From Plasmopara viticola (Eukaryota > Oomycota > Peronosporomycetes > Peronosporales > Peronosporaceae): a stretch of DNA of 64,000 nucleotides. Within the stretch, counting starts at the first letter, position 1, and the number at the start of each line of letters is the position of its first letter. The stretch is from positions 156,876 through 220,875 of the forward strand of contig MBPM02000103.1 in assembly GCA_001695595.3 (NCBI GenBank), written 5' to 3'. The notes under the pieces are model-generated. The model did not search any database. It worked only from the letters and a program-made list of their open reading frames with translations, and was not told the DNA's origin. This document shows, piece by piece, positions 44,770 to 64,000 of this stretch. A program made the position numbers and the translations under genes.

Positions 44770-44925
44770 TGAGTGGGCAACCTCAAAACAAGTTCCGGCT
44801 CTACTCCAACTGGCGCTGAGCCAAAGTGACATTGCGAAAACTCCAAGGAGCACAAGCACTGCCGAGGACAAATGTTCATCTCATGGTTTCGTCTCTCCAA
44901 AATCAACAACTAATCTGTCTCAGTG

Positions 44926-44988: not shown

Positions 44989-45519
44989 AAATCGTACTTA
45001 GTGTTCGAGTTCACCAAGGCTCCCCACCAGGAGTCACGTCCTTTGACCTATTTTTCGTTTGATCATTGTTCTTGACAGTTTTTAGGTGCTGCACCCATAA
45101 TTTCATTTCTTCGAAGACTCATTAGACTGTATATTATTATTTATAGTATATATTCAGAGCTAGATTCAATTGAGAAGTCAAAACGTCTAGATTATTTATG
45201 CAATAGATAAACTTTCAATTGAGCCACAGGAGCGCTTTTGGGACCATGCCTCCTTTTTCCGGTCACTTCCTTAAACAAATTATTAGAAGACTTTGGCAGC
45301 ACAAAATGACCCTACAATAGTCTTTAACGATCTCACAGCTTCAATTATGCATCCTCACAATGACTTTAGAAAAGCCAACTGACGAAGCTAACCTCTAGCG
45401 TTTTTTTTTTGCATTGATTACGTGCTATAGACATGCGACTAATATTAATGCTAGCGAGCTTGTTGTTCTAGCTTGCAAATTTAATGAGACACTACAATAT
45501 GTGTTAAAGTGGAAATACA

Positions 45520-45591
45520 GACTTCGACGGATTCAAATCCGCAGTCTCCCGCTTCGTTGGCGGATGCCTTATCCATTAGATCACGGGATTG
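45520..45591 (-). pseudogene. tRNA-Arg copy 1, decayed
   Basis: The anticodon loop reads CAACGAA, so U33 is lost. The B box is GGATTTGAATCC and the acceptor no longer pairs (GATCCCGTGATC-type 5' end). It is clearly not functional. Confidence 0.8.
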
Positions 45592-45885
45592 TTTTTGGGA
45601 CCATGTCTCCTTTAAAAGTCACTACTTTAAACAGAGTAACCACACATGCAAAGAGGCTTTTGGCAGCAAAAAAATACCCTACAAGCGTCCTAAACGATCT
45701 CGGAGCTTCACTCGTGCATCCTCACAATAGCTCTTCAAATAGTCAACCGACGAGGCTAAACTCTCGCTTTAAATTTGCACCGATTATGTGCGATACACAT
45801 GCGACTAATATAAATGCGCGCGAGTTTATCATTCTTGCTTACAATATGTGGTAAGACACCGCATGATCTGGTAAGATGAAAATCA

Positions 45886-45957
45886 GTCTCTGACGAGACT
45901 CAAACCCGCAATCTCCCGCTTCGTAGGCGGATGCCTTATCCATTGGGCCACGGGGAC
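45886..45957 (-). tRNA. tRNA-Arg(ACG) copy 2, diverged
   Basis: Full length, with GTCTCTGACGAGACTCAAACCC at the 3' side (B box GGTTTGAGTC). The anticodon ACG is kept. Several T-arm changes make its function doubtful. Confidence 0.6.
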
Positions 45958-46261
45958 GTTTAGAGACCGCGTTTTCTTTTTCAAGTCACTACCTTAACCA
46001 GATTATCAGTACAAGAAAAGAGGAGTTCGAAAGCATAAAACAACCCTACAATAGTCTTAAACGACCTTGCAGCTTTAATCGTGTATCCTCACAATGGCTC
46101 TTTTAAAAGTCAACCGACGAGGCTGAACTCTCGCTTTGGTTTTGCATCGCTTACGTCGATTACGTGCTAAAGCCATGAGACTCATACAATTGCGCACGAG
46201 TTTGTCGTTCTTGTTAGCAAAATGCAATAAGACAGCACGTTATGTGTTAGGATGAAAATCA

Positions 46262-46333
46262 GTCTCCAACGGGACTCGAACCCGCAATCTCCCGCTTCGT
46301 AGGCGGATGCCTTATCCATTGGACCACGGGGAC
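46262..46333 (-). tRNA. tRNA-Arg(ACG) copy 3
   Basis: Full length. Differs from consensus at position 11 (C to T) and position 66 (C to T); both leave G-U pairs. Next copy 376 bp on. Confidence 0.85.
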
Positions 46334-46637
46334 GTTTTAAAGACCACGTCTCCTTTTCAAGTCACGACCTTAACCAGATTATCAGTACAAGTCAAGAGGA
46401 CTTTGGAAGTATAAAACAACCCTACAATAGTCTTAAACGACCTTGCAGCTTCAATCATGTATCCTCACAATGGCTTTTTTAAAAGTCAACCGACGAGGCT
46501 GAAGTCTCGCTTTGGTTTCGCAACGTTTACGTCGATTACGTGCTATAGCCATGGGACTAATACAATTGCGCACCAGTTTGTCGTTCTTGTTAGCAAAATG
46601 CAATAAGACAGCACGTTATGTGTTAGGATGAAAATCA

Positions 46638-46709
46638 GTCTCCGACGGGACTCGAACCCGCAATCTCCCGCTTCGTAGGCGGATGCCTTATCCATTGGGC
46701 CACGGGGAC
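46638..46709 (-). tRNA. tRNA-Arg(ACG) copy 4
   Basis: Consensus sequence; followed upstream (to the right) by the AGAGACCGCG spacer type. Next copy 376 bp on. Confidence 0.9.
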
Positions 46710-47013
46710 GTTTAGAGACCGCGTTTTCTTTTTCAAGTCACTACCTTAACCAGATTATCAGTACAAGAAAAGAGGAGTTCGAAAGCATAAAACAACCCTA
46801 CAATAGTCTTAAACGACCTTGCAGCTTTAATCGTGTATCCTCACAATGGCTCTTTTAAAAGTCAACCGACGAGTCTGAACTCTCGCTTTGGTTTTGCATC
46901 GCTTACGTCGATTACGTGCTATAGCCATGAGACTAATACAATTGCGCGCGAGTTTGTCGTTCTTGTCAGCAAAATGCAATAAGACAGCACGTTATGTGTT
47001 AGGATGAAAATCA

Positions 47014-47085
47014 GTCTCCGACGGGACTCGAACCCGCAATCTCCCGCTTCGTAGGCGGATGCCTTATCCATTGGGCCACGGGGAC
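47014..47085 (-). tRNA. tRNA-Arg(ACG) copy 5
   Basis: Consensus sequence. Next copy 377 bp on. Confidence 0.9.
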
Positions 47086-47390
47086 GTTTTAAAGACCACG
47101 TCTGCTTTTTCAAGTCACGACCTTAATCAGATTATCAGTACAACTAAAGAGGACTTTGGAAGCATAAAACAACCCTACAATAGTCTTAAACGACCTTGCA
47201 GCTTAAATCATGTATCCTCACAATGGCTTTTTAAAAAGTCAACCGACGAGGCTGAAGTCTCGCTTTGGTTTTGCATCGTTTACGTCGATTACGTGCTATA
47301 GCCATGAGACTAATACAATTGCGCACGAGTTTGTCGTTCTTGTTAGCAAAATGCAATAAGACAGCACGTTATGTGTTAGGATGAAAATCA

Positions 47391-47462
47391 GTCTCCGACG
47401 GGACTCGAACCCGCAATCTCCCGCTTCGTAGGCGGATGCCTTATCCATTGGGCCACGGGGAC
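47391..47462 (-). tRNA. tRNA-Arg(ACG) copy 6
   Basis: Consensus sequence with the AGAGACCGCG spacer type on its 5' side. Next copy 376 bp on. Confidence 0.9.
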
Positions 47463-47766
47463 GTTTTAGAGACCGCGTTTTCTTTTTCAAGTCACGATCT
47501 TAACCAGATTATCAGTACAAGTAAAGAGGACTTTGGAAGCATAAAACAACCCTACAATAGTCTTAAACGACGTTGCAGCTTCAATCATGTATCCTCACAA
47601 TGGCTTTTTAAAAGTCAACCGACGAGGCTGAAGTCTCGCTTTGGTTTTGCATCGTTTACGTCGATTACGTGCTAAAGCCATGGGACTAATACAATTGCGC
47701 ACGAGTTTGTCGTTCTTGTTAGCAAAATGCAATAAGACAGCACGTTATGTGTTAGGATGAAAATCA

Positions 47767-47838
47767 GTCTCCGACGGGACTCGAACCCGCAATCTCCCGC
47801 TTCGTAGGCGGATGCCTTATCCATTGGGCCACGGGGAC
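47767..47838 (-). tRNA. tRNA-Arg(ACG) copy 7
   Basis: Consensus sequence; first 5' flanking base changed (ATG in place of ACG before the 5' end, reading the minus strand). Next copy 369 bp on, a shorter spacer. Confidence 0.9.
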
Positions 47839-48135
47839 ATTTTAAAGACCACGTCTCCTTTTCAAGTCACGACCTTAATTAGATTATCAGTACAACTAAA
47901 GAGGACTTTGGAAGCATAAAACAACCCTACAATAGTCTTAAACGACGTTGCAGCTTCAATCATGTATCCTCACAATGGCTTTTTAAAAAGTCAACCGACG
48001 AGGCTGAAGTCTCGCTTTGGTTTTGCAACGTTTACGTCGATTACGTGCTAAAGTCATGAGACTAATACAATTGCGCACGAGTTTGTCGTTCTTGTTAGCA
48101 ATAAGACAGCACGTTATGTGTTAGGATGAAAATCA

Positions 48136-48207
48136 GTCTCCGACGGGACTCGAACCCGCAATCTCCCGCTTCGTAGGCGGATGCCTTATCCATTGGGTCA
48201 CGGGGAC
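48136..48207 (-). tRNA. tRNA-Arg(ACG) copy 8
   Basis: Position 10 is A instead of G, which breaks the first D-stem pair and alters the A box (TGACCCAATGG). Possibly weakened. Confidence 0.8.
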
Positions 48208-48510
48208 GTTTTAAAGACCACGTCTTCTTTTCAAGTCACGACCTTAACCAGATTATCAGTACAAGAAAAGAGGAGTTTGGAAGCATAAAACAACCCTACA
48301 ATAGTCTTAAACGACGTTGCAGCTTCAATCATGTATCCTCACAATGGCTTTTTAAAAATCAACCGACGAGGCTGAAGTCTCGCTTTGGTTTTGCAACGTT
48401 TACGTCGATTACGTGCTATAGCCATGGGACTAATACAATTGCGCACCAGTTTGTCGTTCTTGTTAGCAAAATGCAATAAGACAGCACGTTATGTGTTAGG
48501 ATGAAAATCA

Positions 48511-48582
48511 GTCTCCGACGGGACTCGAACCCGCAATCTCCCGCTTCGTAGGCGGATGCCTTATCCATTGGGCCACGGGGAC
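48511..48582 (-). tRNA. tRNA-Arg(ACG) copy 9
   Basis: Consensus sequence. Next copy 376 bp on. Confidence 0.9.
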
Positions 48583-48886
48583 GTTTTAAAGACCACGTCT
48601 CCTTTTTCAAGTCACGACCTTAATTAGATTATCAGTACAACTAAAGAGGACTTTGGAAGCATAAAACAACCCTACAATAGTCTTAAACGACCTTGCAGCT
48701 TAATCATGTAACCTCACAATGGCTCTTTTAAAAGTCAACCGACGAGGCTGAAGTCTCGCTTTGGTTTTGCAACGTTTACGTCGATTACGTGCTATAGCCA
48801 TGGGACTAATACAATTGCGCACCAGTTTGTCGTTCTTGTTAGCAAAATGCAATAAGACAGCACGTTATGTGTTAGGATGAAAATCA

Positions 48887-48958
48887 GTCTCCGACGGGAC
48901 TCGAACCCGCAATGTCCCGCTTCGTAGGCGGATGCCTTATCCATTGGGCCACGGGGAC
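48887..48958 (-). tRNA. tRNA-Arg(ACG) copy 10
   Basis: One change in the variable loop (ACATT for AGATT); pairing is unaffected. Next copy 374 bp on. Confidence 0.88.
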
Positions 48959-49260
48959 GTTTTAAAAACCACGTCTCCTTTTCAAGTCACGACCTTAATT
49001 AGATTATCAGTACAAGTAAAGAGGACTTTGGAAGCATAAAACAACCCTACAATAGTCTTAAACGACCTTGCAGCTTCAATCATGTATCCTCACAATGGCT
49101 TTTTAAAAGTCAACCGACGAGGCTGAAGTCTCGCTTTGGTTTTGCATCGTTTACGTCGATTACGTGCTATAGCCATGGACTAATACAATTGCGCACCAGT
49201 TTGTCGTTCTTGTTAGCAAAATGCAATAAGACAGCACGTTATGTGTTAGGATGAAAATCA

Positions 49261-49332
49261 GTCTCCGACGGGACTCGAACCCGCAATCTCCCGCTTCGTA
49301 GGCGGATGCCTTATCCATTGGGCCACGGGGAC
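49261..49332 (-). tRNA. tRNA-Arg(ACG) copy 11
   Basis: Consensus sequence. Next copy 375 bp on. Confidence 0.9.
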
Positions 49333-49635
49333 GTTTTAAAGACCACGTCTCCTTTTCAAGTCACGACCTTAACCAGATTATCAGTACAAGTAAAGAGGAC
49401 TTTGGAAGCATAAAACAACCCTACAATAGTCTTAAACGACGTTGCAGCTTCAATCATGTATCCTCACAATGGCTTTTTAAAAGTCAACCGACGAGGCTGA
49501 AGTCTCGCTTTGGTTTTGCATCGTTTACGTCGATTACGTGCTATAGCCATGGGACTAATACAATTGCGCACGAGTTTGTCGTTCTTGTTAGCAAAATGCA
49601 ATAAGACAGCACGTTATGTGTTAGGATGAAAATCA

Positions 49636-49707
49636 GTCTCCGACGGGACTCGAACCCGCAATCTCCCGCTTCGTAGGCGGATGCCTTATCCATTGGGCCA
49701 CGGGGAC
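49636..49707 (-). tRNA. tRNA-Arg(ACG) copy 12
   Basis: Consensus sequence. Next copy 376 bp on. Confidence 0.9.
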
Positions 49708-50011
49708 GTTTTAAAGACCACGTCTCCTTTTTCAAGTCACGACCTTAACCAGATTATCAGTACAAGTAAAGAGGACTTTGGAAGCATAAAACAACCCTAC
49801 AATAGTCTTAAACGACCTTGCAGCTTTAATCGTGTATCCTCACAATGGCTCTTTTAAAAGTCAACCGACGAGGCTGAAGTCTCGCTTTGGTTTTGCAACG
49901 TTTACGTCGATTACGTGCTATAGCCATGGACTAATACAATTGCGCACGAGTTTGTCGTTCTTGTTAGCAAAATGCAATAAGACAGCACGTTATGTGTTAG
50001 GATGAAAATCA

Positions 50012-50083
50012 GTCTCCGACGGGACTCGAACCCGCAATCTCCCGCTTCGTAGGCGGATGCCTTATCCATTGGGCCACGGGGAC
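50012..50083 (-). tRNA. tRNA-Arg(ACG) copy 13
   Basis: Consensus sequence. Next copy 375 bp on. Confidence 0.9.
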
Positions 50084-50386
50084 GTTTTAAAGACCACGTC
50101 TCCTTTTTCAAGTCACGACCTTAACCAGATTATCAGTACAAGTAAAGAGGACTTTGGAAGCATAAAACAACCCTACAATAGTCTTAAACGACCTTGCAGC
50201 TTCAATCATGTATCCTCACAATGGCTTTTTAAAAATCAACCGACGAGGCTGAAGTCTCGCTTTGGTTTTGCAACGTTTACGTCGATTACGTGCTATAGCC
50301 ATGGACTAATACAATTGCGCACGAGTTTGTCGTTCTTGTTAGCAAAATGCAATAAGACAGCACGTTATGTGTTAGGATGAAAATCA

Positions 50387-50458
50387 GTCTCCGACGGGAC
50401 TCGAACCCGCAATCTCCCGCTTCGTAGGCGGATGCCTTATCCATTGGGCCACGGGGAC
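50387..50458 (-). tRNA. tRNA-Arg(ACG) copy 14
   Basis: Consensus sequence; its 5' flank is shortened (TTTTAAGACCACGCG). Next copy 373 bp on. Confidence 0.9.
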
Positions 50459-50759
50459 GTTTTAAGACCACGCGTTCTTTTTCAAGTCACGACCTTAACC
50501 AGATTATCAGTACAAGTAAAGAGGACTTTGGAAGCATAAAACAACCCTACAATAGTCTTAAACGACCTTGCAGCTTAATCATGTATCCTCACAATGGCTT
50601 TTTAAAAGTCAACCGACGAGGCTGAAGTCTCGCTTTGGTTTTGCAACGTTTACGTCGATTACGTGCTATAGCCATGGACTAATACAATTGCGCACGAGTT
50701 TGTCGTTCTTGTTAGCAAAATGCAATAAGACAGCACGTTATGTGTTAGGATGAAAATCA

Positions 50760-50831
50760 GTCTCCGACGGGACTCGAACCCGCAATCTCCCGCTTCGTAG
50801 GCGGATGCCTTATCCATTGGGCCACGGGGAC
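50760..50831 (-). tRNA. tRNA-Arg(ACG) copy 15
   Basis: Consensus sequence. Next copy 375 bp on. Confidence 0.9.
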
Positions 50832-51134
50832 GTTTTAAAGACCACGTCTCCTTTTTCAAGTCACGACCTTAACCAGATTATCAGTACAAGAAAAGAGGAG
50901 TTCGAAAGCATAAAACAACCCTACAATAGTCTTAAACGACCTTGCAGCTTTAATCGTGTATCCTCACAATGGCTCTTTTAAAAGTCAACCGACGAGGCTG
51001 AAGTCTCGCTTTGGTTTTGCAACGTTTACGTCGATTACGTGCTATAGCCATGGACTAATACAATTGCGCACAGTTTGTCGTTCTTGTTAGCAAAATGCAA
51101 TAAGACAGCACGTTATGTGTTAGGATGAAAATCA

Positions 51135-51206
51135 GTCTCCGACGGGACTCGAACCCGCAATCTCCCGCTTCGTAGGCGGATGCCTTATCCATTGGGCCAC
51201 GGGGAC
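51135..51206 (-). tRNA. tRNA-Arg(ACG) copy 16
   Basis: Consensus sequence. Next copy 376 bp on. Confidence 0.9.
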
Positions 51207-51510
51207 GTTTTAAAGACCACGTCTCCTTTTTCAAGTCACGACCTTAACCAGATTATCAGTACAAGTAAAGAGGACTTTGGAAGCATAAAACAACCCTACA
51301 ATAGTCTTAAACGACCTTGCAGCTTTAATCATGTATCCTCACAATGGCTTTTTAAAAGTCAACCGACGAGGCTGAAGTCTCGCTTTGGTTTTGCAACGTT
51401 TACGTCGATTACGTGCTATAGCCATGGGACTAATACAATTGCGCACGAGTTTGTCGTTCTTGTTAGCAAAATGCAATAAGACAGCACGTTATGTGTTAGG
51501 ATGAAAATCA

Positions 51511-51582
51511 GTCTCCGACGGGACTCGAACCCGCAATCTCCCGCTTCGTAGGCGGATGCCTTATCCATTGGGCCACGGGGAC
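51511..51582 (-). tRNA. tRNA-Arg(ACG) copy 17
   Basis: Consensus sequence. Next copy 373 bp on. Confidence 0.9.
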
Positions 51583-51883
51583 GTTTTAAAGACCACGTTC
51601 CTTTTTCAAGTCACGACCTTAACCAGATTATCAGTACAAGTAAAGAGGACTTTGGAAGCATAAAACAACCCTACAATAGTCTTAAACGACCTTGCAGCTT
51701 TAATCATGTATCCTCACAATGGCTTTTTAAAAGTCAACCGACGAGGCTGAAGTCTCGCTTTGGTTTTGCAACGTTTACGTCGATTACGTGCTATAGCCAT
51801 GGACTAATACAATTGCGCACAGTTTGTCGTTCTTGTTAGCAAAATGCAATAAGACAGCACGTTATGTGTTAGGATGAAAATCA

Positions 51884-51955
51884 GTCTCCGACGGGACTCG
51901 AACCCGCAATCTCCCGCTTCGTAGGCGGATGCCTTATCCATTGGGCCACGGGGAC
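51884..51955 (-). tRNA. tRNA-Arg(ACG) copy 18
   Basis: Consensus sequence. Next copy 377 bp on. Confidence 0.9.
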
Positions 51956-52260
51956 GTTTTAAAGACCACGTCTCCTTTTTCAAGTCACTACCTTAATTAG
52001 ATTATCAGTACAACTAAAAAGGACTTTGGAAGCATAAAACAACCCTACAATAGTCTTAAACGACCTTGCAGCTTTAATCGTGTATCCTCACAATGGCTCT
52101 TTTAAAAGTCAACCGACGAGGCTGAAGTCTCGCTTTGGTTTTGCAACGTTTACGTCGATTACGTGCTATAGCCATGGGACTAATACAATTGCGCACGAGT
52201 TTGTCGTTCTTGTTAGCAAAATGCAATAAGACAGCACGTTATGTGTTAGGATGAAAATCA

Positions 52261-52332
52261 GTCTCCGACGGGACTCGAACCCGCAATCTCCCGCTTCGTA
52301 GGCGGATGCCTTATCCATTGGGCCACGGGGAC
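52261..52332 (-). tRNA. tRNA-Arg(ACG) copy 19
   Basis: Consensus sequence. Next copy 374 bp on. Confidence 0.9.
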
Positions 52333-52634
52333 GTTTTAAAGACCACGTCTCCTTTTTCAAGTCACGACCTTAACCAGATTATCAGTACAAGTAAAGAGGA
52401 CTTTGGAAGCATAAAACAACCCTACAATAGTCTTAAACGACCTTGCAGCTTAATCATGTATCCTCACAATGGCTTTTTAAAAGTCAACCGACGAGGCTGA
52501 AGTCTCGCTTTGGTTTTGCAACGTTTACGTCGATTACGTGCTATAGCCATGGACTAATACAATTGCGCACGAGTTTGTCGTTCTTGTTAGCAAAATGCAA
52601 TAAGACAGCACGTTATGTGTTAGGATGAAAATCA

Positions 52635-52706
52635 GTCTCCGACGGGACTCGAACCCGCAATCTCCCGCTTCGTAGGCGGATGCCTTATCCATTGGGCCAC
52701 GGGGAC
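52635..52706 (-). tRNA. tRNA-Arg(ACG) copy 20
   Basis: Consensus sequence. Next copy 375 bp on. Confidence 0.9.
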
Positions 52707-53009
52707 GTTTTAAAGACCACGTCTCCTTTTCAAGTCACGACCTTAACCAGATTATCAGTACAAGTAAAGAGGACTTTGGAAGCATAAAACAACCCTACAA
52801 TAGTCTTAAACGACCTTGCAGCTTTAATCATGTATCCTCACAATGGCTTTTTAAAAATCAACCGACGAGGCTGAAGTCTCGCTTTGGTTTTGCAACGTTT
52901 ACGTCGATTACGTGCTATAGCCATGGGACTAATACAATTGCGCACGAGTTTGTCGTTCTTGTTAGCAAAATGCAATAAGACAGCACGTTATGTGTTAGGA
53001 TGAAAATCA

Positions 53010-53081
53010 GTCTCCGACGGGACTCGAACCCGCAATCTCCCGCTTCGTAGGCGGATGCCTTATCCATTGGGCCACGGGGAC
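53010..53081 (-). tRNA. tRNA-Arg(ACG) copy 21
   Basis: Consensus sequence. Next copy 375 bp on. Confidence 0.9.
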
Positions 53082-53384
53082 GTTTTAAAGACCACGTCTC
53101 CTTTTTCAAGTCACGACCTTAACCAGATTATCAGTACAAGTAAAGAGGACTTTGGAAGCATAAAACAACCCTACAATAGTCTTAAACGACGTTGCAGCTT
53201 CAATCATGTATCCTCACAATGGCTTTTTAAAAGTCAACCGACGAGGCTGAAGTCTCGCTTTGGTTTTGCAACGTTTACGTCGATTACGTGCTATAGCCAT
53301 GGACTAATACAATTGCGCACGAGTTTGTCGTTCTTGTTAGCAAAATGCAATAAGACAGCACGTTATGTGTTAGGATGAAAATCA

Positions 53385-53456
53385 GTCTCCGACGGGACTC
53401 GAACCCGCAATCTCCCGCTTCGTAGGCGGATGCCTTATCCATTGGGCCACGGGGAC
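53385..53456 (-). tRNA. tRNA-Arg(ACG) copy 22
   Basis: Consensus sequence. Next copy 375 bp on. Confidence 0.9.
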
Positions 53457-53759
53457 GTTTTAAAGACCACGTCTCCTTTTTCAAGTCACGACCTTAACCA
53501 GATTATCAGTACAAGTAAAGAGGACTTTGGAAGCATAAAACAACCCTACAATAGTCTTAAACGACCTTGCAGCTTCAATCATGTATCCTCACAATGGCTT
53601 TTTAAAGGTCAACCGACGAGGCTGAAGTCTCGCTTTGGTTTTGCAACGTTTACGTCGATTACGTGCTATAGCCATGGACTAATACAATTGCGCACGAGTT
53701 TGTCGTTCTTGTTAGCAAAATGCAATAAGACAGCACGTTATGTGTTAGGATGAAAATCA

Positions 53760-53831
53760 GTCTCCGACGGGACTCGAACCCGCAATCTCCCGCTTCGTAG
53801 GCGGATGCCTTATCCATTGGGCCACGGGGAC
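53760..53831 (-). tRNA. tRNA-Arg(ACG) copy 23
   Basis: Consensus sequence; first of a run of nearly identical units. Next copy 376 bp on. Confidence 0.9.
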
Positions 53832-54135
53832 GTTTTAAAGACCACGTCTCCTTTTTCAAGTCACGACCTTAACCAGATTATCAGTACAAGTAAAGAGGAC
53901 TTTGGAAGCATAAAACAACCCTACAATAGTCTTAAACGACCTTGCAGCTTTAATCATGTATCCTCACAATGGCTTTTTAAAAGTCAACCGACGAGGCTGA
54001 AGTCTCGCTTTGGTTTTGCAACGTTTACGTCGATTACGTGCTATAGCCATGGGACTAATACAATTGCGCACGAGTTTGTCGTTCTTGTTAGCAAAATGCA
54101 ATAAGACAGCACGTTATGTGTTAGGATGAAAATCA

Positions 54136-54207
54136 GTCTCCGACGGGACTCGAACCCGCAATCTCCCGCTTCGTAGGCGGATGCCTTATCCATTGGGCCA
54201 CGGGGAC
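54136..54207 (-). tRNA. tRNA-Arg(ACG) copy 24
   Basis: Consensus sequence within the most homogeneous stretch. Next copy 376 bp on. Confidence 0.9.
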
Positions 54208-54511
54208 GTTTTAAAGACCACGTCTCCTTTTTCAAGTCACGACCTTAACCAGATTATCAGTACAAGTAAAGAGGACTTTGGAAGCATAAAACAACCCTAC
54301 AATAGTCTTAAACGACCTTGCAGCTTTAATCATGTATCCTCACAATGGCTTTTTAAAAGTCAACCGACGAGGCTGAAGTCTCGCTTTGGTTTTGCAACGT
54401 TTACGTCGATTACGTGCTATAGCCATGGGACTAATACAATTGCGCACGAGTTTGTCGTTCTTGTTAGCAAAATGCAATAAGACAGCACGTTATGTGTTAG
54501 GATGAAAATCA

Positions 54512-54583
54512 GTCTCCGACGGGACTCGAACCCGCAATCTCCCGCTTCGTAGGCGGATGCCTTATCCATTGGGCCACGGGGAC
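54512..54583 (-). tRNA. tRNA-Arg(ACG) copy 25
   Basis: Consensus sequence within the most homogeneous stretch. Next copy 376 bp on. Confidence 0.9.
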
Positions 54584-54887
54584 GTTTTAAAGACCACGTC
54601 TCCTTTTTCAAGTCACGACCTTAACCAGATTATCAGTACAAGTAAAGAGGACTTTGGAAGCATAAAACAACCCTACAATAGTCTTAAACGACCTTGCAGC
54701 TTTAATCATGTATCCTCACAATGGCTTTTTAAAAGTCAACCGACGAGGCTGAAGTCTCGCTTTGGTTTTGCAACGTTTACGTCGATTACGTGCTATAGCC
54801 ATGGGACTAATACAATTGCGCACGAGTTTGTCGTTCTTGTTAGCAAAATGCAATAAGACAGCACGTTATGTGTTAGGATGAAAATCA

Positions 54888-54959
54888 GTCTCCGACGGGA
54901 CTCGAACCCGCAATCTCCCGCTTCGTAGGCGGATGCCTTATCCATTGGGCCACGGGGAC
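54888..54959 (-). tRNA. tRNA-Arg(ACG) copy 26
   Basis: Consensus sequence within the most homogeneous stretch. Next copy 375 bp on. Confidence 0.9.
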
Positions 54960-55262
54960 GTTTTAAAGACCACGTCTCCTTTTTCAAGTCACGACCTTAA
55001 CCAGATTATCAGTACAAGTAAAGAGGACTTTGGAAGCATAAAACAACCCTACAATAGTCTTAAACGACCTTGCAGCTTTAATCATGTATCCTCACAATGG
55101 CTTTTTAAAAGTCAACCGACGAGGCTGAAGTCTCGCTTTGGTTTTGCAACGTTTACGTCGATTACGTGCTATAGCCATGGACTAATACAATTGCGCACGA
55201 GTTTGTCGTTCTTGTTAGCAAAATGCAATAAGACAGCACGTTATGTGTTAGGATGAAAATCA

Positions 55263-55334
55263 GTCTCCGACGGGACTCGAACCCGCAATCTCCCGCTTCG
55301 TAGGCGGATGCCTTATCCATTGGGCCACGGGGAC
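55263..55334 (-). tRNA. tRNA-Arg(ACG) copy 27
   Basis: Consensus sequence; the spacer on its left has the one-base-shorter CCATGGACTAATAC form. Next copy 376 bp on. Confidence 0.9.
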
Positions 55335-55638
55335 GTTTTAAAGACCACGTCTCCTTTTTCAAGTCACGACCTTAACCAGATTATCAGTACAAGTAAAGAG
55401 GACTTTGGAAGCATAAAACAACCCTACAATAGTCTTAAACGACCTTGCAGCTTTAATCATGTATCCTCACAATGGCTTTTTAAAAGTCAACCGACGAGGC
55501 TGAAGTCTCGCTTTGGTTTTGCAACGTTTACGTCGATTACGTGCTATAGCCATGGGACTAATACAATTGCGCACGAGTTTGTCGTTCTTGTTAGCAAAAT
55601 GCAATAAGACAGCACGTTATGTGTTAGGATGAAAATCA

Positions 55639-55710
55639 GTCTCCGACGGGACTCGAACCCGCAATCTCCCGCTTCGTAGGCGGATGCCTTATCCATTGGG
55701 CCACGGGGAC
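55639..55710 (-). tRNA. tRNA-Arg(ACG) copy 28
   Basis: Consensus sequence. Next copy 376 bp on. Confidence 0.9.
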
Positions 55711-56014
55711 GTTTTAAAGACCACGTCTCCTTTTTCAAGTCACGACCTTAACCAGATTATCAGTACAAGTAAAGAGGACTTTGGAAGCATAAAACAACCC
55801 TACAATAGTCTTAAACGACCTTGCAGCTTTAATCATGTATCCTCACAATGGCTTTTTAAAAGTCAACCGACGAGGCTGAAGTCTCGCTTTGGTTTTGCAA
55901 CGTTTACGTCGATTACGTGCTATAGCCATGGGACTAATACAATTGCGCACGAGTTTGTCGTTCTTGTTAGCAAAATGCAATAAGACAGCACGTTATGTGT
56001 TAGGATGAAAATCA

Positions 56015-56086
56015 GTCTCCGACGGGACTCGAACCCGCAATCTCCCGCTTCGTAGGCGGATGCCTTATCCATTGGGCCACGGGGAC
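56015..56086 (-). tRNA. tRNA-Arg(ACG) copy 29
   Basis: Consensus sequence with the rarer AGAGACCGCGTTTTC flank on its 5' side. Next copy 374 bp on. Confidence 0.9.
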
Positions 56087-56388
56087 GTTTAGAGACCGCG
56101 TTTTCTTTTTCAAGTCACTACCTTAACCAGATTATCAGTACAAGTAAAGAGGACTTTGGAAGCATAAAACAACCCTACAATAGTCTTAAACGACCTTGCA
56201 GCTTTAATCATGTATCCTCACAATGGCTTTTTAAAAGTCAACCGACGAGGCTGAAGTCTCGCTTTGGTTTTGCAACGTTTACGTCGATTACGTGCTATAG
56301 CCATGGACTAATACAATTGCGCACGAGTTTGTCGTTCTTGTTAGCAAAATGCAATAAGACAGCACGTTATGTGTTAGGATGAAAATCA

Positions 56389-56460
56389 GTCTCCGACGGG
56401 ACTCGAACCCGCAATCTCCCGCTTCGTAGGCGGATGCCTTATCCATTGGGCCACGGGGAC
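56389..56460 (-). tRNA. tRNA-Arg(ACG) copy 30
   Basis: Consensus sequence with a shortened 5' flank. Next copy 373 bp on. Confidence 0.9.
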
Positions 56461-56761
56461 GTTTTAAGACCACGTCTCTTTTTCAAGTCACGACCTTAAC
56501 CAGATTATCAGTACAAGTAAAGAGGACTTTGGAAGCATAAAACAACCCTACAATAGTCTTAAACGACCTTGCAGCTTTAATCATGTATCCTCACAATGGC
56601 TTTTTAAAAGTCAACCGACGAGGCTGAAGTCTCGCTTTGGTTTTGCAACGTTTACGTCGATTACGTGCTATAGCCATGGACTAATACAATTGCGCACGAG
56701 TTTGTCGTTCTTGTTAGCAAAATGCAATAAGACAGCACGTTATGTGTTAGGATGAAAATCA

Positions 56762-56833
56762 GTCTCCGACGGGACTCGAACCCGCAATCTCCCGCTTCGT
56801 AGGCGGATGCCTTATCCATTGGGCCACGGGGAC
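56762..56833 (-). tRNA. tRNA-Arg(ACG) copy 31
   Basis: Consensus sequence. Next copy 377 bp on. Confidence 0.9.
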
Positions 56834-57138
56834 GTTTTAAAGACCACGTCTCCTTTTTCAAGTCACGACCTTAACCAGATTATCAGTACAAGTAAAGAGG
56901 ACTTTGGAAGCATAAAACAACCCTACAATAGTCTTAAACGACCTTGCAGCTTTAATCGTGTATCCTCACAATGGCTCTTTTAAAAGTCAACCGACGAGGC
57001 TGAAGTCTCGCTTTGGTTTTGCAACGTTTACGTCGATTACGTGCTATAGCCATGGGACTAATACAATTGCGCACGAGTTTGTCGTTCTTGTTAGCAAAAT
57101 GCAATAAGACAGCACGTTATGTGTTAGGATGAAAATCA

Positions 57139-57210
57139 GTCTCCGACGGGACTCGAACCCGCAATCTCCCGCTTCGTAGGCGGATGCCTTATCCATTGGG
57201 CCACGGGGAC
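57139..57210 (-). tRNA. tRNA-Arg(ACG) copy 32
   Basis: Consensus sequence. Next copy 376 bp on. Confidence 0.9.
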
Positions 57211-57514
57211 GTTTTAAAGACCACGTCTCCTTTTTCAAGTCACGACCTTAACCAGATTATCAGTACAAGTAAAGAGGACTTTGGAAGCATAAAACAACCC
57301 TACAATAGTCTTAAACGACCTTGCAGCTTTAATCATGTATCCTCACAATGGCTTTTTAAAAATCAACCGACGAGGCTGAAGTCTCGCTTTGGTTTTGCAA
57401 CGTTTACGTCGATTACGTGCTATAGCCATGGGACTAATACAATTGCGCACGAGTTTGTCGTTCTTGTTAGCAAAATGCAATAAGACAGCACGTTATGTGT
57501 TAGGATGAAAATCA

Positions 57515-57586
57515 GTCTCCGACGGGACTCGAACCCGCAATCTCCCGCTTCGTAGGCGGATGCCTTATCCATTGGGCCACGGGGAC
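57515..57586 (-). tRNA. tRNA-Arg(ACG) copy 33
   Basis: Consensus sequence. Next copy 374 bp on. Confidence 0.9.
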
Positions 57587-57888
57587 GTTTTAAAGACCAC
57601 GTCTCCTTTTTCAAGTCACGACCTTAACCAGATTATCAGTACAAGTAAAGAGGACTTTGGAAGCATAAAACAACCCTACAATAGTCTTAAACGACCTTGC
57701 AGCTTAATCATGTATCCTCACAATGGCTTTTTAAAAGTCAACCGACGAGGCTGAAGTCTCGCTTTGGTTTTGCAACGTTTACGTCGATTACGTGCTATAG
57801 CCATGGACTAATACAATTGCGCACGAGTTTGTCGTTCTTGTTAGCAAAATGCAATAAGACAGCACGTTATGTGTTAGGATGAAAATCA

Positions 57889-57960
57889 GTCTCCGACGGG
57901 ACTCGAACCCGCAATCTCCCGCTTCGTAGGCGGATGCCTTATCCATTGGGCCACGGGGAC
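57889..57960 (-). tRNA. tRNA-Arg(ACG) copy 34
   Basis: Consensus sequence; the spacer to its right lacks the AACC of CTTAACCAGATTATC. Next copy 374 bp on. Confidence 0.9.
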
Positions 57961-58262
57961 GTTTTAAAGACCACGTCTCCTTTTTCAAGTCACTACCTTA
58001 AGATTATCAGTACAAGTAAAGAGGACTTTGGAAGCATAAAACAACCCTACAATAGTCTTAAACGACCTTGCAGCTTTAATCGTGTATCCTCACAATGGCT
58101 CTTTTAAAAGTCAACCGACGAGGCTGAAGTCTCGCTTTGGTTTTGCAACGTTTACGTCGATTACGTGCTATAGCCATGGGACTAATACAATTGCGCACCA
58201 GTTTGTCGTTCTTGTTAGCAAAATGCAATAAGACAGCACGTTATGTGTTAGGATGAAAATCA

Positions 58263-58334
58263 GTCTCCGACGGGACTCGAACCCGCAATCTCCCGCTTCG
58301 TAGGCGGATGCCTTATCCATTGGGCCACGGGGAC
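58263..58334 (-). tRNA. tRNA-Arg(ACG) copy 35
   Basis: Consensus sequence. Next copy 375 bp on. Confidence 0.9.
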
Positions 58335-58637
58335 GTTTTAAAGACCACGTCTCCTTTTTCAAGTCACGACCTTAACCAGATTATCAGTACAAGAAAGAGG
58401 ACTTTGGAAGCATAAAACAACCCTACAATAGTCTTAAACGACCTTGCAGCTTTAATCGTGTATCCTCACAATGGCTCTTTAAAAGTCAACCGACGAGGCT
58501 GAAGTCTCGCTTTGGTTTTGCAACGTTTACGTCGATTACGTGCTATAGCCATGGGACTAATACAATTGCGCACGAGTTTGTCGTTCTTGTTAGCAAAATG
58601 CAATAAGACAGCACGTTATGTGTTAGGATGAAAATCA

Positions 58638-58709
58638 GTCTCCGACGGGACTCGAACCCGCAATCTCCCGCTTCGTAGGCGGATGCCTTATCCATTGGGC
58701 CACGGGGGC
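58638..58709 (-). tRNA. tRNA-Arg(ACG) copy 36
   Basis: Position 2 is C instead of T, giving a second C-A mismatch in the acceptor stem (2-71) besides 4-69. Likely impaired. Confidence 0.8.
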
Positions 58710-59013
58710 GTCTTAAAGACCACGTCTTTTTTTCAAGTCACGACCTTAATTAGATTATCAGTACAACTAAAAAGGACTTTGGAAGCATAAAACAACCCTA
58801 CAATAGTCTTAAACGACCTTGCAGCTTTAATCATGTATCCTCACAATGGCTCTTTTAAAAGTCAACCTACGAGGCTGAAGTCTCGCTTTAGTTTGGCAAC
58901 GTTTACGTCGATTACGTGCTATAGCCATGGGACTAATACAATTGCGCACGAGTTTGTCGTTCTTGTTAGCAAAATGCAATAAGACAGCACGTTATGTGTT
59001 AGGATGAAAATCA

Positions 59014-59085
59014 GTCTCCGACGGGACTCGAACCCGCAATCTCCCGCTTCGTAGGCGGATGCCTTATCCATTGGGCCACGGGGAC
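59014..59085 (-). tRNA. tRNA-Arg(ACG) copy 37
   Basis: Consensus sequence. Next copy 376 bp on. Confidence 0.9.
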
Positions 59086-59389
59086 GTTTTAAAGACCACG
59101 TCTCCTTTTTCAAGTCACGACCTTAACCAGATTATCAGTACAACTAAAGAGGACTTTGGAAGCATAAAACAACCCTACAATAGTCTTAAACGACCTTGCA
59201 GCTTAAATCATGTATCCTCACAATGGCTCTTTTAAAAGTCAACCGACGAGGCTGAAGTCTCGCTTTGGTTTTGCAACGTTTACGTCGATTACGTGCTATA
59301 GCCATGGACTAATACAATTGCGCACGAGTTTGTCGTTCTTGTTAGCAAAATGCAATAAGACAGCACGTTATGTGTTAGGATGAAAATCA

Positions 59390-59461
59390 GTCTCCGACGG
59401 GACTCGAACCCGCAATCTCCCGCTTCGTAGGCGGATGCCTTATCCATTGGGCCACGGGGAC
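59390..59461 (-). tRNA. tRNA-Arg(ACG) copy 38
   Basis: Consensus sequence. Next copy 372 bp on. Confidence 0.9.
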
Positions 59462-59761
59462 GTTTTAAAGACCACGTCTCCTTTTTCAAGTCACGACCTT
59501 AAGATTATCAGTACAAGTAAAGAGGACTTTGGAAGCATAAAACAACCCTACAATAGTCTTAAACGACCTTGCAGCTTTAATCATGTATCCTCACAATGGC
59601 TTTTTAAAAGTCAACCGACGAGGCTGAAGTCTCGCTTTGGTTTTGCAACGTTTACGTCGATTACGTGCTATAGCCATGGACTAATACAATTGCGCACGAG
59701 TTTGTCGTTCTTGTTAGCAAAATGCAATAAGACAGCACGTTATGTGTTAGGATGAAAATCA

Positions 59762-59833
59762 GTCTCCGACGGGACTCGAACCCGCAATCTCCCGCTTCGT
59801 AGGCGGATGCCTTATCCATTGGGCCACGGGGAC
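59762..59833 (-). tRNA. tRNA-Arg(ACG) copy 39
   Basis: Consensus sequence. Next copy 374 bp on. Confidence 0.9.
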
Positions 59834-60135
59834 GTTTTAAAGACCACGTCTCCTTTTCAAGTCACGACCTTAACCAGATTATCAGTACAAGTAAAGAGGA
59901 CTTTGGAAGCATAAAACAACCCTACAATAGTCTTAAACGACCTTGCAGCTTTAATCGTGTATCCTCACAATGGCTCTTTTAAGGTCAACCGACGAGGCTG
60001 AAGTCTCGCTTTGGTTTTGCAACGTTTACGTCGATTACGTGCTATAGCCATGGACTAATACAATTGCGCACGAGTTTGTCGTTCTTGTTAGCAAAATGCA
60101 ATAAGACAGCACGTTATGTGTTAGGATGAAAATCA

Positions 60136-60206
60136 GTCTCCGACGGGACTCGAACCCGCAATCTCCCGCTTCGTAGGCGGATGCCTTATCCATTGGGCCA
60201 CGGGAC
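60136..60206 (-). pseudogene. tRNA-Arg copy 40, one-base deletion
   Basis: One C of the 5' acceptor run is missing (GTCCCG), shortening the stem. The loss is in a homopolymer, so a sequencing or assembly error is possible. Confidence 0.75.
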
Positions 60207-60503
60207 GTTTAAGACCACGTCTTTTTCAAGTCACGACCTTAACCAGATTATCAGTACAAGTAAAGAGGACTTTGAAGCATAAAACAACCCTACAATAGTC
60301 TTAAACGACCTTGCAGCTTTAATCGTGTATCCTCACAATGGCTCTTTTAAGGTCAACCGACGAGGCTGAAGTCTCGCTTTGGATTTGCAACGTTTACGTC
60401 GATTACGTGCTATAGCCATGAGACTAATACAATTGCGCACAGTTTGTCGTTCTTGTTAGCAAAATGCAATAAGACAGCACGTTATGTGTTAGGATGAAAA
60501 TCA

Positions 60504-60575
60504 GTCTCCGACGGGACTCGAACCCGCAATCTCCCGCTTCGTAGGCGGATGCCTTATCCATTGGGCCACGGGGAC
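60504..60575 (-). tRNA. tRNA-Arg(ACG) copy 41
   Basis: Consensus sequence; the unit to its left is short (368 bp). Confidence 0.9.
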
Positions 60576-60878
60576 GTTTTAAAGACCACGTCTCCTTTTT
60601 CAAGTCACGACCTTAACCAGATTATCAGTACAAGTAAAGAGGACTTTGGAAGCATAAAACAACCCTACAATAGTCTTAAACGACCTTGCAGCTTAAATCA
60701 TGTATCCTCACAATGGCTTTTTAAAAGTCAACCGACGAGGCTGAAGTCTCGCTTTGGTTTTGCAACGTTTACGTCGATTACGTGCTATAGCCATGGACTA
60801 ATACAATTGCGCACCAGTTTGTCGTTCTTGTTAGCAAAATGCAATAAGACAGCACGTTATGTGTTAGGATGAAAATCA

Positions 60879-60950
60879 GTCTCCGACGGGACTCGAACCC
60901 GCAATCTCCCGCTTCGTAGGCGGATGCCTTATCCATTGGGCCACGGGGAC
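60879..60950 (-). tRNA. tRNA-Arg(ACG) copy 42
   Basis: Consensus sequence. Next copy 373 bp on. Confidence 0.9.
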
Positions 60951-61251
60951 GTTTTAAAGACCACGTCTCCTTTTTCAAGTCACGACCTTAATTAGATTAT
61001 CAGTACAACTAAAGAGGACTTTGGAAGCATAAAACAACCCTACAATAGTCTTAAACGACCTTGCAGCTTAATCATGTATCCTCACAATGGCTTTTTAAAA
61101 GTCAACCGACGAGGCTGAAGTCTCGCTTTGGTTTTGCAACGTTTACGTCGATTACGTGCTATAGCCATGGACTAATACAATTGCGCACAGTTTGTCGTTC
61201 TTGTTAGCAAAATGCAATAAGACAGCACGTTATGTGTTAGGATGAAAATCA

Positions 61252-61323
61252 GTCTCCGACGGGACTCGAACCCGCAATCTCCCGCTTCGTAGGCGGATGC
61301 CTTATCCATTGGGCCACGGGGAC
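61252..61323 (-). tRNA. tRNA-Arg(ACG) copy 43
   Basis: Consensus sequence. Next copy 373 bp on. Confidence 0.9.
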
Positions 61324-61624
61324 GTTTTAAAGACCACGTCTCCTTTTCAAGTCACGACCTTAACCAGATTATCAGTACAAGTAAAGAGGACTTTGGAAGC
61401 ATAAAACAACCCTACAATAGTCTTAAACGACCTTGCAGCTTAATCATGTATCCTCACAATGGCTTTTTAAAAGTCAACCGACGAGGCTGAAGTCTCGCTT
61501 TGGTTTTGCAACGTTTACGTCGATTACGTGCTATAGCCATGGACTAATACAATTGCGCACGAGTTTGTCGTTCTTGTTAGCAAAATGCAATAAGACAGCA
61601 CGTTATGTGTTAGGATGAAAATCA

Positions 61625-61695
61625 GTCTCCGACGGGACTCGAACCCGCAATCTCCCGCTTCGTAGCGGATGCCTTATCCATTGGGCCACGGGGAC
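61625..61695 (-). pseudogene. tRNA-Arg copy 44, one-base deletion
   Basis: One C is lost at the anticodon stem/loop border (CCGCTACG for CCGCCTACG), leaving a six-base loop. Real decay or a homopolymer error. Confidence 0.75.
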
Positions 61696-61997
61696 GTTTT
61701 AAAGACCACGTCTCCTTTTTCAAGTCACGACCTTAATTAGATTATCAGTACAAGTAAAGAGGACTTTGGAAGCATAAAACAACCCTACAATAGTCTTAAA
61801 CGACTTGCAGCTTTAATCGTGTATCCTCACAATGGCTCTTTTAAAAGTCAACCGACGAGGCTGAAGTCTCGCTTTGGTTTGCAACGTTTACGTCGATTAC
61901 GTGCTATAGCCATGGACTAATACAATTGCGCACGAGTTTGTCGTTCTTGTTAGCAAAATGCAATAAGACAGCACGTTATGTGTTAGGATGAAAATCA

Positions 61998-62068
61998 GTC
62001 TCCGACGGGACTCGAACCCGCAATCTCCGCTTCGTAGGCGGATGCCTTATCCATTGGGCCCACGGGAC
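61998..62068 (-). pseudogene. tRNA-Arg copy 45, several indels
   Basis: A base is lost in the anticodon stem 3' side (CTCCGC), one C is gained near the D-stem and one base is lost in the acceptor. Not expected to fold properly. Confidence 0.8.
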
Positions 62069-62372
62069 ATTTAGAGACCGCGTTCTTTTCAAGTCACTAC
62101 CTAGATTAACATATTCATCAGTACAAGAAAAGAGGAGTTCGAAAGCATAAAACAACCCTACAATAGTCTTAAACGACCTTGCAGCTTTAATCGTGTATCC
62201 TCACAATGGCTCTTTTAAAAGTCAACCGACGAGGCTGAAGTCTCGCTTTGGTTTGCAACGTTTACGTCGATTACGTGCTATAGCCATGGGACTAATACAA
62301 TTGCGCACGAGTTTGTCGTTCTTGTTAGCAAAATGCAATAAGACAGCACGTTATGTGTTAGGATGAAAATCA

Positions 62373-62444
62373 GTCTCCGACGGGACTCGAACCCGCAATC
62401 TCCCGCTTCGTAGGCGGATGCCTTATCCATTGGGCCACGGGGAC
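62373..62444 (-). tRNA. tRNA-Arg(ACG) copy 46
   Basis: Consensus sequence between two damaged copies. Next copy 376 bp on. Confidence 0.9.
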
Positions 62445-62748
62445 GTTTAAAGACCACGTCTCCTTTTTCAAGTCACTACGACTTACAGATTATCAGTACA
62501 AGAAAAGAGGAGTTCGAAAGCATAAAACAACCCTACAATAGTCTTAAACGACCTTGCAGCTTTAATCGTGTATCCTCACAATGGCTCTTTTAAAAGTCAA
62601 CCGACGAGGCTGAAGTCTCGCTTTGGTTTTGCAACGTTTACGTCGATTACGTGCTATAGCCATGGGACTAATACAATTGCGCACGAGTTTGTCGTTCTTG
62701 TTAGCAAAATGCAATAAGACAGCACGTTATGTGTTAGGATGAAAATCA

Positions 62749-62818
62749 GTCTCCGACGGGACTCGAACCCGCAATCTCCCGCTTCGTAGGCGGATGCCTT
62801 ATCCATTGGCCACGGGAC
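62749..62818 (-). pseudogene. tRNA-Arg copy 47, two deletions
   Basis: One base is missing in the D-stem G run and one in the acceptor G run (plus strand ATTGGCCACGGGACG). Confidence 0.75.
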
Positions 62819-63122
62819 GTTTTAAAGACCACGTCTCCTTTTCAAGTCACTACCTTAACCAGATTATCAGTACAAGAAAAGAGGACTTTGGAAGCATAAA
62901 ACAACCCTACAATAGTCTTAAACGACCTTGCAGCTTTAATCGTGTATCCTCACAATGGCTCTTTTAAAAGTCAACCTACGAGGCTGAAGTCTCGCTTTAG
63001 TTTGGCAACGTTTACGTCGATTACGTGCTATAGCCATGGGACTAATACAATTGCGCACGAGTTTGTCGTTCTTGTTAGCAAAATGCAATAAGACAGCACG
63101 TTATGTGTTAGGATGAAAATCA

Positions 63123-63194
63123 GTCTCCGACGGGACTCGAACCCGCAATCTCCCGCTTCGTAGGCGGATGCCTTATCCATTGGGCCACGGGGAC
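63123..63194 (-). tRNA. tRNA-Arg(ACG) copy 48
   Basis: Consensus sequence. Next copy 377 bp on. Confidence 0.9.
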
Positions 63195-63499
63195 GTTTTA
63201 AAGACCACGTCTCCTTTTTCAAGTCACTACCTTAATTAGATTATCAGTACAACTAAAAAGGACTTTGGAAGCATAAAACAACCCTACAATAGTCTTAAAC
63301 GACCTTGCAGCTTTAATCGTGTATCCTCACAATGGCTCTTTTAAAAGTCAACCGACGAGGCTGAAGTCTCGCTTTGGTTTTGCAACGTTTACGTCGATTA
63401 CGTGCTATAGCCATGGGACTAATACAATTGCGCACGAGTTTGTCGTTCTTGTTAGCAAAATGCAATAAGACAGCACGTTATGTGTTAGGATGAAAATCA

Positions 63500-63571
63500 G
63501 TCTCCGACGGGACTCGAACCCGCAATCTCCCGCTTCGTAGGCGGATGCCTTATCCATTGGGCCACGGGGAC
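63500..63571 (-). tRNA. tRNA-Arg(ACG) copy 49
   Basis: Consensus sequence with the AGAGACC spacer type on its 5' side. Next copy 373 bp on. Confidence 0.9.
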
Positions 63572-63872
63572 ATTTAGAGACCTCGTTTTCTTTTTCAAGT
63601 CACTACCTTAACCAGATTATCAGTACAAGAAAAGAGGAGTTCGAAAGCATAAAACAACCCTACAATAGTCTTAAACGACCTTGCAGCTTTAATCGTGTAT
63701 CCTCACAATGGCTCTTTTAAAAGTCAACCGACGAGGCTGAAGTCTCGCTTTGGTTTTGCATCGTTTACGTCGATTACGTGCTAAAGCCATGAGACTAATA
63801 CAATTGCGCACGAGTTTGTCGTTCTGTTAGCAAAAGTGCAATAAGACAGCACGTTATGTTAGGATGAAATCA

Positions 63873-63943
63873 GTCTCCGACGGGACTCGAACCCGCAATC
63901 TCCCGCTTCGTAGGCGATGCCTTATCCATTGCGGCCACGGGAC
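63873..63943 (-). pseudogene. tRNA-Arg copy 50, several indels
   Basis: A base is lost in the anticodon stem (TAGGCGATGCC on the plus strand), one is gained near the D-arm (TTGCGGCC) and one is lost in the acceptor. It is the last copy before the window ends. Confidence 0.75.
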
Positions 63944-64000
63944 GTTTTTAAAGACCACTCTTTCCTTTTTCAAGTCACGACCTTAATTAGATTATCAGTA

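What the first reader, a model, noticed from the sequence alone, without database searches (positions are those of the whole stretch)
45215..64000. A very long tandem array of tRNA-Arg(ACG) genes in 375-bp units
Fifty tRNA-Arg positions, 43 of the 48 regular copies full length with intact Pol III boxes and a T-run terminator, repeat at an almost constant period and run off the window. Tandem tRNA arrays on this scale are known in Entamoeba but would be unusual here. One isoacceptor (ACG, read as ICG for CGU/CGC/CGA) would be hugely over-represented. The array may supply tRNA, act as a satellite or boundary element, or generate tRNA-derived small RNAs; the sequence alone does not decide.
Basis: partly seen in the sequence, partly recalled or inferred. 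Interest (0 to 1): 0.88.

Follow-up and report, generated by a model that had tools for sequence, protein, structure and literature searches.

The report
Giant tandem array of arginine-tRNA genes
A grapevine downy mildew genome carries hundreds of near-identical copies of one arginine-tRNA gene in a head-to-tail array; this is real, but a relative of this water mould is already known to keep most tRNA genes this way, so it is a new example of a known arrangement.

Summary
From 45,215 to the window end, 376-bp units each carry one minus-strand tRNA-Arg(ACG) gene: 50 tRNA positions, 39 identical over 72 nt. The window end is the end of contig C103. The genome (92,937,831 bp, 358 contigs) matches the published Plasmopara viticola assembly. 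It holds 356 exact copies: 39 on C103, 107 on C150, the other 210 fitting contig C165.

It is not unusual for its host. In Phytophthora infestans about 64% of tRNA genes lie in tandem arrays of one gene, in print since 2022. This genome also has repeated tRNA-Phe and tRNA-Lys genes.

Best explanation: a multigene tRNA family homogenised by unequal exchange, kept by selection, perhaps the only source of tRNA-Arg(ACG). Four fixed-form patterns found no other ACG gene; they are not exhaustive.

Left over: acceptor pair C4-A69 is mismatched in nearly every copy, and in core units the 50 nt downstream of the tRNA are as invariant as the tRNA. Transcription and true copy number were not testable.

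The parts
45215..64000 (-). tandem array of about 50 units of 376 bp, each with one tRNA-Arg(ACG) gene on the minus strand; cut off by the contig end
   Evidence: TRF, ARAGORN, Rfam, anchored count; left edge by BLAST; contig end
45215..46334 (-). degenerate left edge: a truncated unit, then units about 75-87% identical to the consensus before the uniform part
   Evidence: BLAST of the doubled consensus
53009..53081 (-). one representative tRNA gene (73 nt): A-box-like TGGCCCAATGG, B-box-like GGTTCGAGTCC (consensus forms recalled), acceptor mismatch C4-A69
   Evidence: Rfam 55.7 bits with alignment; fold
52959..53008 (-). the 50 nt after that tRNA, starting GATTTT (possible Pol III terminator); as invariant as the tRNA in core units
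   Evidence: 0 of 50 sites with an alternative shared by 3 or more of 180 core units
16182..17366 (-). decayed relic of the same unit, same orientation, about 28 kb left of the array
   Evidence: BLAST pieces of 64-82% identity; 451 of 704 positions identical in the longest alignment
44571..44984 (+). flank next to the array; a similar stretch (end of an open frame plus downstream DNA) lies beside the tRNA-Phe genes on C6
   Evidence: pairwise alignment with L034; 82% matches on C6 and C245 for 44840-44976

Best explanation
A monomeric tandem tRNA gene array of the kind already described in an oomycete, here in (by inference) Plasmopara viticola. Hundreds of copies of one tRNA-Arg(ACG) gene, expected to decode CGU/CGC/CGA after A34-to-inosine conversion (recalled), lie head to tail. 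The array grows, shrinks and homogenises by unequal crossing-over and gene conversion, so its interior is uniform and its edges decay. The gene is kept by purifying selection because the array is the main, perhaps only, source of this essential tRNA; many single copies are probably redundant. Shown: the array, its extent in the assembly, uniform interior and decayed edges, constraint on the tRNA and its 3' flank in core units, no other ACG gene with four patterns, other repeated tRNA genes in the same genome. Inferred: Pol III transcription, unequal exchange as the driver, redundancy of copies.
For: Array and copies. In 180 core units (of 319 tabulated; 139 edge or intermediate units set aside), sites with an alternative shared by 3 or more units: 0 of 73 in the tRNA, 0 of 50 in the 3' flank, 30 of 253 in the rest (Fisher p 6e-6 for the first 123 sites against the rest, 4e-4 for the tRNA alone, 0.007 for the 3' flank alone). 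C165 pieces: 4 of 5826 tRNA cells substituted against 431 of 23849 spacer cells. Edge on C150 beyond 46 kb: 245 of 4428 against 1252 of 19013, so decayed throughout. Other ACG genes: 0, 1 (inside the C150 array), 2 (inside the C165 array) and 0 hits. CGU+CGC+CGA are 175 of 3829 codons in eight window ORFs read stop to stop. Precedent in P. infestans, including near-identical monomeric arrays with variants often near one edge.
Against: No expression data. The acceptor stem has a fixed C4-A69 mismatch, and the tRNA does not fold better than shuffles (z 0.82; 154 of 200 shuffles at least as stable). The flank constraint is not the same everywhere: over all C103 units the 3' flank (26 of 2487) varies more than the tRNA (19 of 3640), and in C150 at 20-46 kb the middle of the unit, not the upstream flank, varies most. 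At a threshold of 2 units, 9 of 73 tRNA sites vary. Similarity between units is nearly flat over lags 1-10 and falls only at long lags on C103, C150 and C165's first piece, partly because edges decay; in the other two C165 pieces there is no clear trend. Plasmopara halstedii was predicted to have only 380 tRNA genes, so a close relative may lack such arrays, or its assembly may be collapsed.
Confidence: 0.8

Rival explanations
1. A tRNA-derived satellite: the unit once held a working tRNA gene but now spreads and persists as silent repeat DNA (or a chromatin boundary), while the cell's tRNA-Arg(ACG) comes from elsewhere or from very few copies.
For: Unit length and copy number are satellite-like (general definition); fixed C4-A69 mismatch; a related tandem tRNA cluster in Arabidopsis is silenced in most tissues (abstract); Entamoeba authors think many arrayed copies may be inactive.
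Against: The tRNA is the least variable part of core units together with its 3' flank, which silent DNA does not predict; no other ACG gene was found with four patterns. The left flank is gene-bearing; there are no chromatin data.
Confidence: 0.12
2. Assembly inflation: a real but shorter array multiplied by the assembler or by keeping pieces of both haplotypes.
For: [quoted passage not shown] mean read length 8,072 bp (passages). C165's first 5 kb is 98.9% identical to C150:26-31 kb, so C165 may be the other haplotype; no exact overlap joins the contig ends.
Against: 262 of 319 tabulated units are distinct as aligned, the largest identical class being 18, so most are not plain copies (sequencing errors may add to this). 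Arrays of this kind agreed with read depth in P. infestans.
Confidence: 0.06

Closest known systems
Monomeric tandem tRNA gene arrays of Phytophthora infestans (PMC9584435; tRNA section read in full, other passages seen)
   Same: Oomycete; one tRNA gene per unit; hundreds of copies (271 tRNA-Cys in 513-nt units); near-identical copies with variants often near one edge; several isoacceptors arrayed in one genome
   Different: Other species and isoacceptor; unit 376 bp; single-chromosome location and read depth not testable here
Entamoeba tRNA gene arrays (PMC2652664; abstract, function section and passages seen)
   Same: Tandem arrays of tRNA genes, function beyond tRNA supply unclear
   Different: Units there hold up to 5 tRNA genes, with short tandem repeats between genes in E. 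histolytica and E. dispar; here one gene per unit and no inner repeat reported by TRF
Arabidopsis Ser/Tyr tRNA cluster (PMC12308677; abstract and outline seen)
   Same: Tandemly repeated tRNA genes in a eukaryote
   Different: Two tRNA kinds, silenced in most tissues; expression here unknown
PpSat1/PpSat2 satellites of Phytophthora parasitica (PMC7290008; passages seen)
   Same: Oomycete tandem arrays of 100-500-bp units in hundreds of copies, some at scaffold ends
   Different: No tRNA is mentioned: the one 'tRNA' in the text is in a reference title
Human 1q23.3 tRNA variable-number repeat (PMC4041453; start of abstract in a listing only)
   Same: Tandem repeat containing tRNA genes
   Different: 7.3-kb units, 9-43 per allele; proposed boundary element

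Membership tests
Oomycete monomeric tRNA gene array | head-to-tail units with a single tRNA gene in one orientation | tested here: met
   50 positions on one strand in the window; same on C150 and the three C165 pieces
Oomycete monomeric tRNA gene array | hundreds of nearly identical copies, variants towards an edge | tested here: met
   356 exact copies; decayed edges on C103 and C150
Oomycete monomeric tRNA gene array | all copies on one chromosome | tested here: inconclusive
   three contigs; orientation allows one locus, no exact overlaps; C165 may be the other haplotype
Oomycete monomeric tRNA gene array | other tRNA families arrayed in the same genome | tested here: met
   Phe and Lys; only 63 of 13,680 tRNA candidates were scored
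Oomycete monomeric tRNA gene array | copy number supported by read depth | not testable with these tools
   no reads held
Entamoeba-type array | short tandem repeats between genes (E. histolytica/E. dispar), up to 5 genes per unit | tested here: not met
   TRF reports only the 376-bp period inside the window array
Functional tRNA gene | cloverleaf, anticodon, internal promoter boxes, T-run after the gene | tested here: met
   Rfam alignment and score, ARAGORN; box consensus recalled; GATTTT follows each of the 146 exact copies examined
Functional tRNA gene | fully paired acceptor stem | tested here: not met
   C4-A69 mismatch: C in 296 of 297 units with a base at position 4, A69 in all with a base
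Functional tRNA gene | transcription, processing, aminoacylation | not testable with these tools
   no RNA data
Satellite DNA | 100-500-bp monomers, at least 100 copies, head to tail | tested here: met
   376 bp; 356 exact tRNA copies
Satellite DNA | heterochromatic or centromeric position | not testable with these tools
   no chromatin data; the left flank is gene-bearing

The most novel reading that the evidence does not exclude
The unit under selection is larger than the tRNA: about 50 nt after the gene form a conserved element (a downstream Pol III, processing or recombination signal) in an array that is the organism's only source of tRNA-Arg(ACG), and that tRNA works despite, or after correction of, a fixed C4-A69 acceptor mismatch.
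Probability: 0.22. Interest if true: 0.5.

Novelty: new member of a known kind. Interest (0 to 1): 0.33.

Why it matters
It extends large single-gene tRNA arrays, documented in Phytophthora infestans, to a downy mildew with at least three isoacceptors repeated. It also gives hundreds of alignable units in which selection and homogenisation can be separated site by site. If the array is the only ACG source, its natural copy-number variation would show how many copies a cell needs. It also cautions that short-read oomycete assemblies undercount tRNA genes, as the P. infestans authors argue for older assemblies.

Tried and rejected
A DNA search of the whole unit in the genome was not scored (too many letters). 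One guessed spacer variant gave 0 matches; another minor variant then exposed C165. Exact scans of the viral and prokaryotic collections for a 33-nt tRNA core gave 0, so nothing outside this genome could be compared. A lax Rfam scan of about three units showed only the tRNA, plus matches on the other strand to a plastid 5' UTR family far below its cut-off. A B-box-like stretch at the array flank was not recognised as a tRNA by Rfam. Eight tRNA-Phe edge units (two of them partial) were too few and too decayed to test whether their 3' flank is also protected. Contig ends were compared for overlap; none was exact. A whole-genome tRNA search scored only 63 of 13,680 candidates, so it gives no tRNA census. 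Rejected: chance or simple-sequence artefact; Entamoeba-type units.
Full report
OBSERVATION. The right-hand 18.8 kb of the window is a tandem array. TRF gives 45285-64000, period 376, 50.0 copies, 96% matches. ARAGORN tRNA genes, all minus strand, 44 Arg(ACG) and one with an unreadable anticodon. Rfam gives 48 tRNA hits, 39 at an identical 55.7 bits. I counted 50 tRNA positions spaced 367-377 bp: 39 identical over 72 nt, 6 with substitutions, 5 with single-base indels. Matching searches puts the five indel copies beyond base 60,100, close to the contig end, so they may be sequence errors (inference). BLAST of the unit consensus extends the left edge to 45215, inside a truncated tRNA.

WHERE IT IS. 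The window is C103:156876-220875 of a genome of 92,937,831 bases in 358 contigs, and C103 ends at 220,875. The motor part of the kinesin ORF at 34791-39818 is closest to Phytophthora and Plasmopara proteins (87-89% for the best four named hits). The published P. viticola INRA-PV221 assembly has 92.94 Mb and, in its Table 1, 358 scaffolds (its abstract says 359, passages).

EXTENT. The exact 72-nt tRNA occurs 356 times, 146 in one orientation and 210 in the other, with 0 for the backwards control (only the first 100 places are listed). C103 holds 39 and C150 107, which accounts for the 146. C150 is array from base 1 to about 68,956; ARAGORN tRNAs in its first 70 kb. C165 (88,647 bp) was found through a minor variant. 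Three 10-kb pieces of it (first, one inside, last) hold 27, 26 and 26 ARAGORN genes and 76 exact copies, projecting to 225 for the whole contig against the 210 that remain. I did not read the other 58.6 kb of C165, and the 210 were not listed one by one, so a few may lie elsewhere. If C165 is array throughout, the total is about 176 kb, roughly 470 units by length. C103 (array at its right end) and C150 (array at its left end) have the same orientation and could be two edges of one locus, with C165 reversed between them. But no exact overlap joins them, and C165's first 5 kb is 98.9% identical to C150:26-31 kb, so C165 may be the other haplotype.

WHAT VARIES. I tabulated 319 units: 50 from C103, 189 from C150, 80 from the three C165 pieces. 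In the C165 pieces, substitutions are 4 of 5826 cells in the tRNA, 1 of 3998 in the next 50 nt, 212 of 14039 in the middle and 218 of 5812 in the 76 nt upstream. In C150 below 20 kb they are 17 of 3848, 0 of 2650, 76 of 9349 and 130 of 3984. In C150 at 20-46 kb they are 52 of 5058, 7 of 3532, 432 of 12424 and 148 of 5215, so there the middle varies most. Over all of C103, edge included, they are 19 of 3640, 26 of 2487, 150 of 8799 and 137 of 3751, so there the 3' flank varies more than the tRNA. At the C150 edge beyond 46 kb everything has decayed: 245 of 4428, 98 of 3132, 672 of 11063 and 482 of 4818 (all). In 180 core units (C165 pieces, C150 below 20 kb, C103 above 46.5 kb; the other 139 set aside), sites where 3 or more units share an alternative are 0 of 73 in the tRNA, 0 of 50 in the 3' flank and 30 of 253 in the rest; at a threshold of 2 units they are 9, 0 and 43. 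Fisher p is 6e-6 for the first 123 sites against the rest, 4e-4 for the tRNA alone and 0.007 for the flank alone. The variants are linked in subtypes, so these p-values are optimistic, and local gene conversion is an alternative to selection. Unit-to-unit difference is nearly flat over lags 1-10 and rises only at long lags on C103, C150 and C165's first piece, partly because of decayed edges. The uniform interior with decayed edges is what unequal exchange predicts; the lag curve adds little.

THE tRNA. Acceptor GUCCCCG against CGGAGAC leaves C4-A69 unpaired (fold, which is no more stable than shuffles: 154 of 200 fold at least as well). Position 4 is C in 296 of 297 units with a base there; A69 and T73 are present in all units with a base there. 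GATTTT follows the tRNA in all 146 exact copies examined on C103 and C150. Four fixed-form searches for a different ACG gene found nothing outside the array: 0 hits, 1 inside C150's array, 2 inside C165's array, 0. A gene with a differently built arm could have been missed. CGU, CGC and CGA make up 175 of 3829 codons in eight window ORFs read stop to stop, so such a tRNA is needed.

NOT ALONE. A tRNA-family search of the genome scored 63 of 13,680 candidates and shows regularly spaced genes on C27 and C140, with others on C16. Small pieces of C27 and C140 carry tRNA-Lys(TTT) genes 557 and 540 bp apart. A tRNA-Phe(GAA) core occurs 140 times; the listed places lie on C6, C224 and C245, mostly about 383 bp apart or a multiple of it, with four Phe genes seen at each of two edges. 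In P. [quoted passage not shown] monomeric single-chromosome arrays are nearly identical with variants often near one edge, and read depth agreed with the assembly. The same paper predicts only 380 tRNA genes in Plasmopara halstedii, its lowest count, and warns of assembly artefacts. Its figure legend lists a Pl. viticola assembly. An earlier P. viticola draft reported 320 tRNA genes (passage), which collapse of repeats could explain (inference). The nine paper searches made listed no paper whose title or abstract start reports this locus; most papers were seen only as listings, and supplements could not be read.

VERDICT. Real, larger than stated, and a new member of a known kind. The leftovers worth testing are the invariant 3' flank in core units and the fixed acceptor mismatch.

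Noticed in passing
window 16182-17366: Decayed relic of the array unit in the same orientation about 28 kb left of the array, 64% identical over 704 aligned positions; suggests the array or a predecessor was here long ago.
   Followed up: partly
window 44571-44984; L034 (C6) about 1500-1840; L035 (C245): The stretch beside the Arg array resembles the stretch beside tRNA-Phe genes on C6 (aligned) and C245 (82% match to part of it), as if array edges and neighbouring DNA had been duplicated together.
   Followed up: partly
window 45087-45233: A dispersed repeat next to the array: most of the 23 genome matches of the flank query fall here, at 78-83% identity.
   Followed up: no
L036 2133-2205 (C140): A well-formed tRNA (65.0 bits) with anticodon TTA, read by ARAGORN as a stop-codon tRNA, on the contig that carries tRNA-Lys(TTT) genes; possibly a mutated Lys copy.
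   Followed up: no
L046 5478-5551 and 6194-6267 (C150 edge): Two decayed edge copies read anticodon ACA and are called tRNA-Cys by ARAGORN: edge decay creates odd anticodons that could mislead tRNA counts.
   Followed up: no
window 1042-44490: The left flank is gene-bearing: dymeclin, spermidine synthase, a methyltransferase, ankyrin repeats, tRNA pseudouridine synthase, a kinesin and Cox11 by Pfam in 7 of 8 ORFs scanned; the ORF nearest the array (43666-44487) has no Pfam match.
   Followed up: partly
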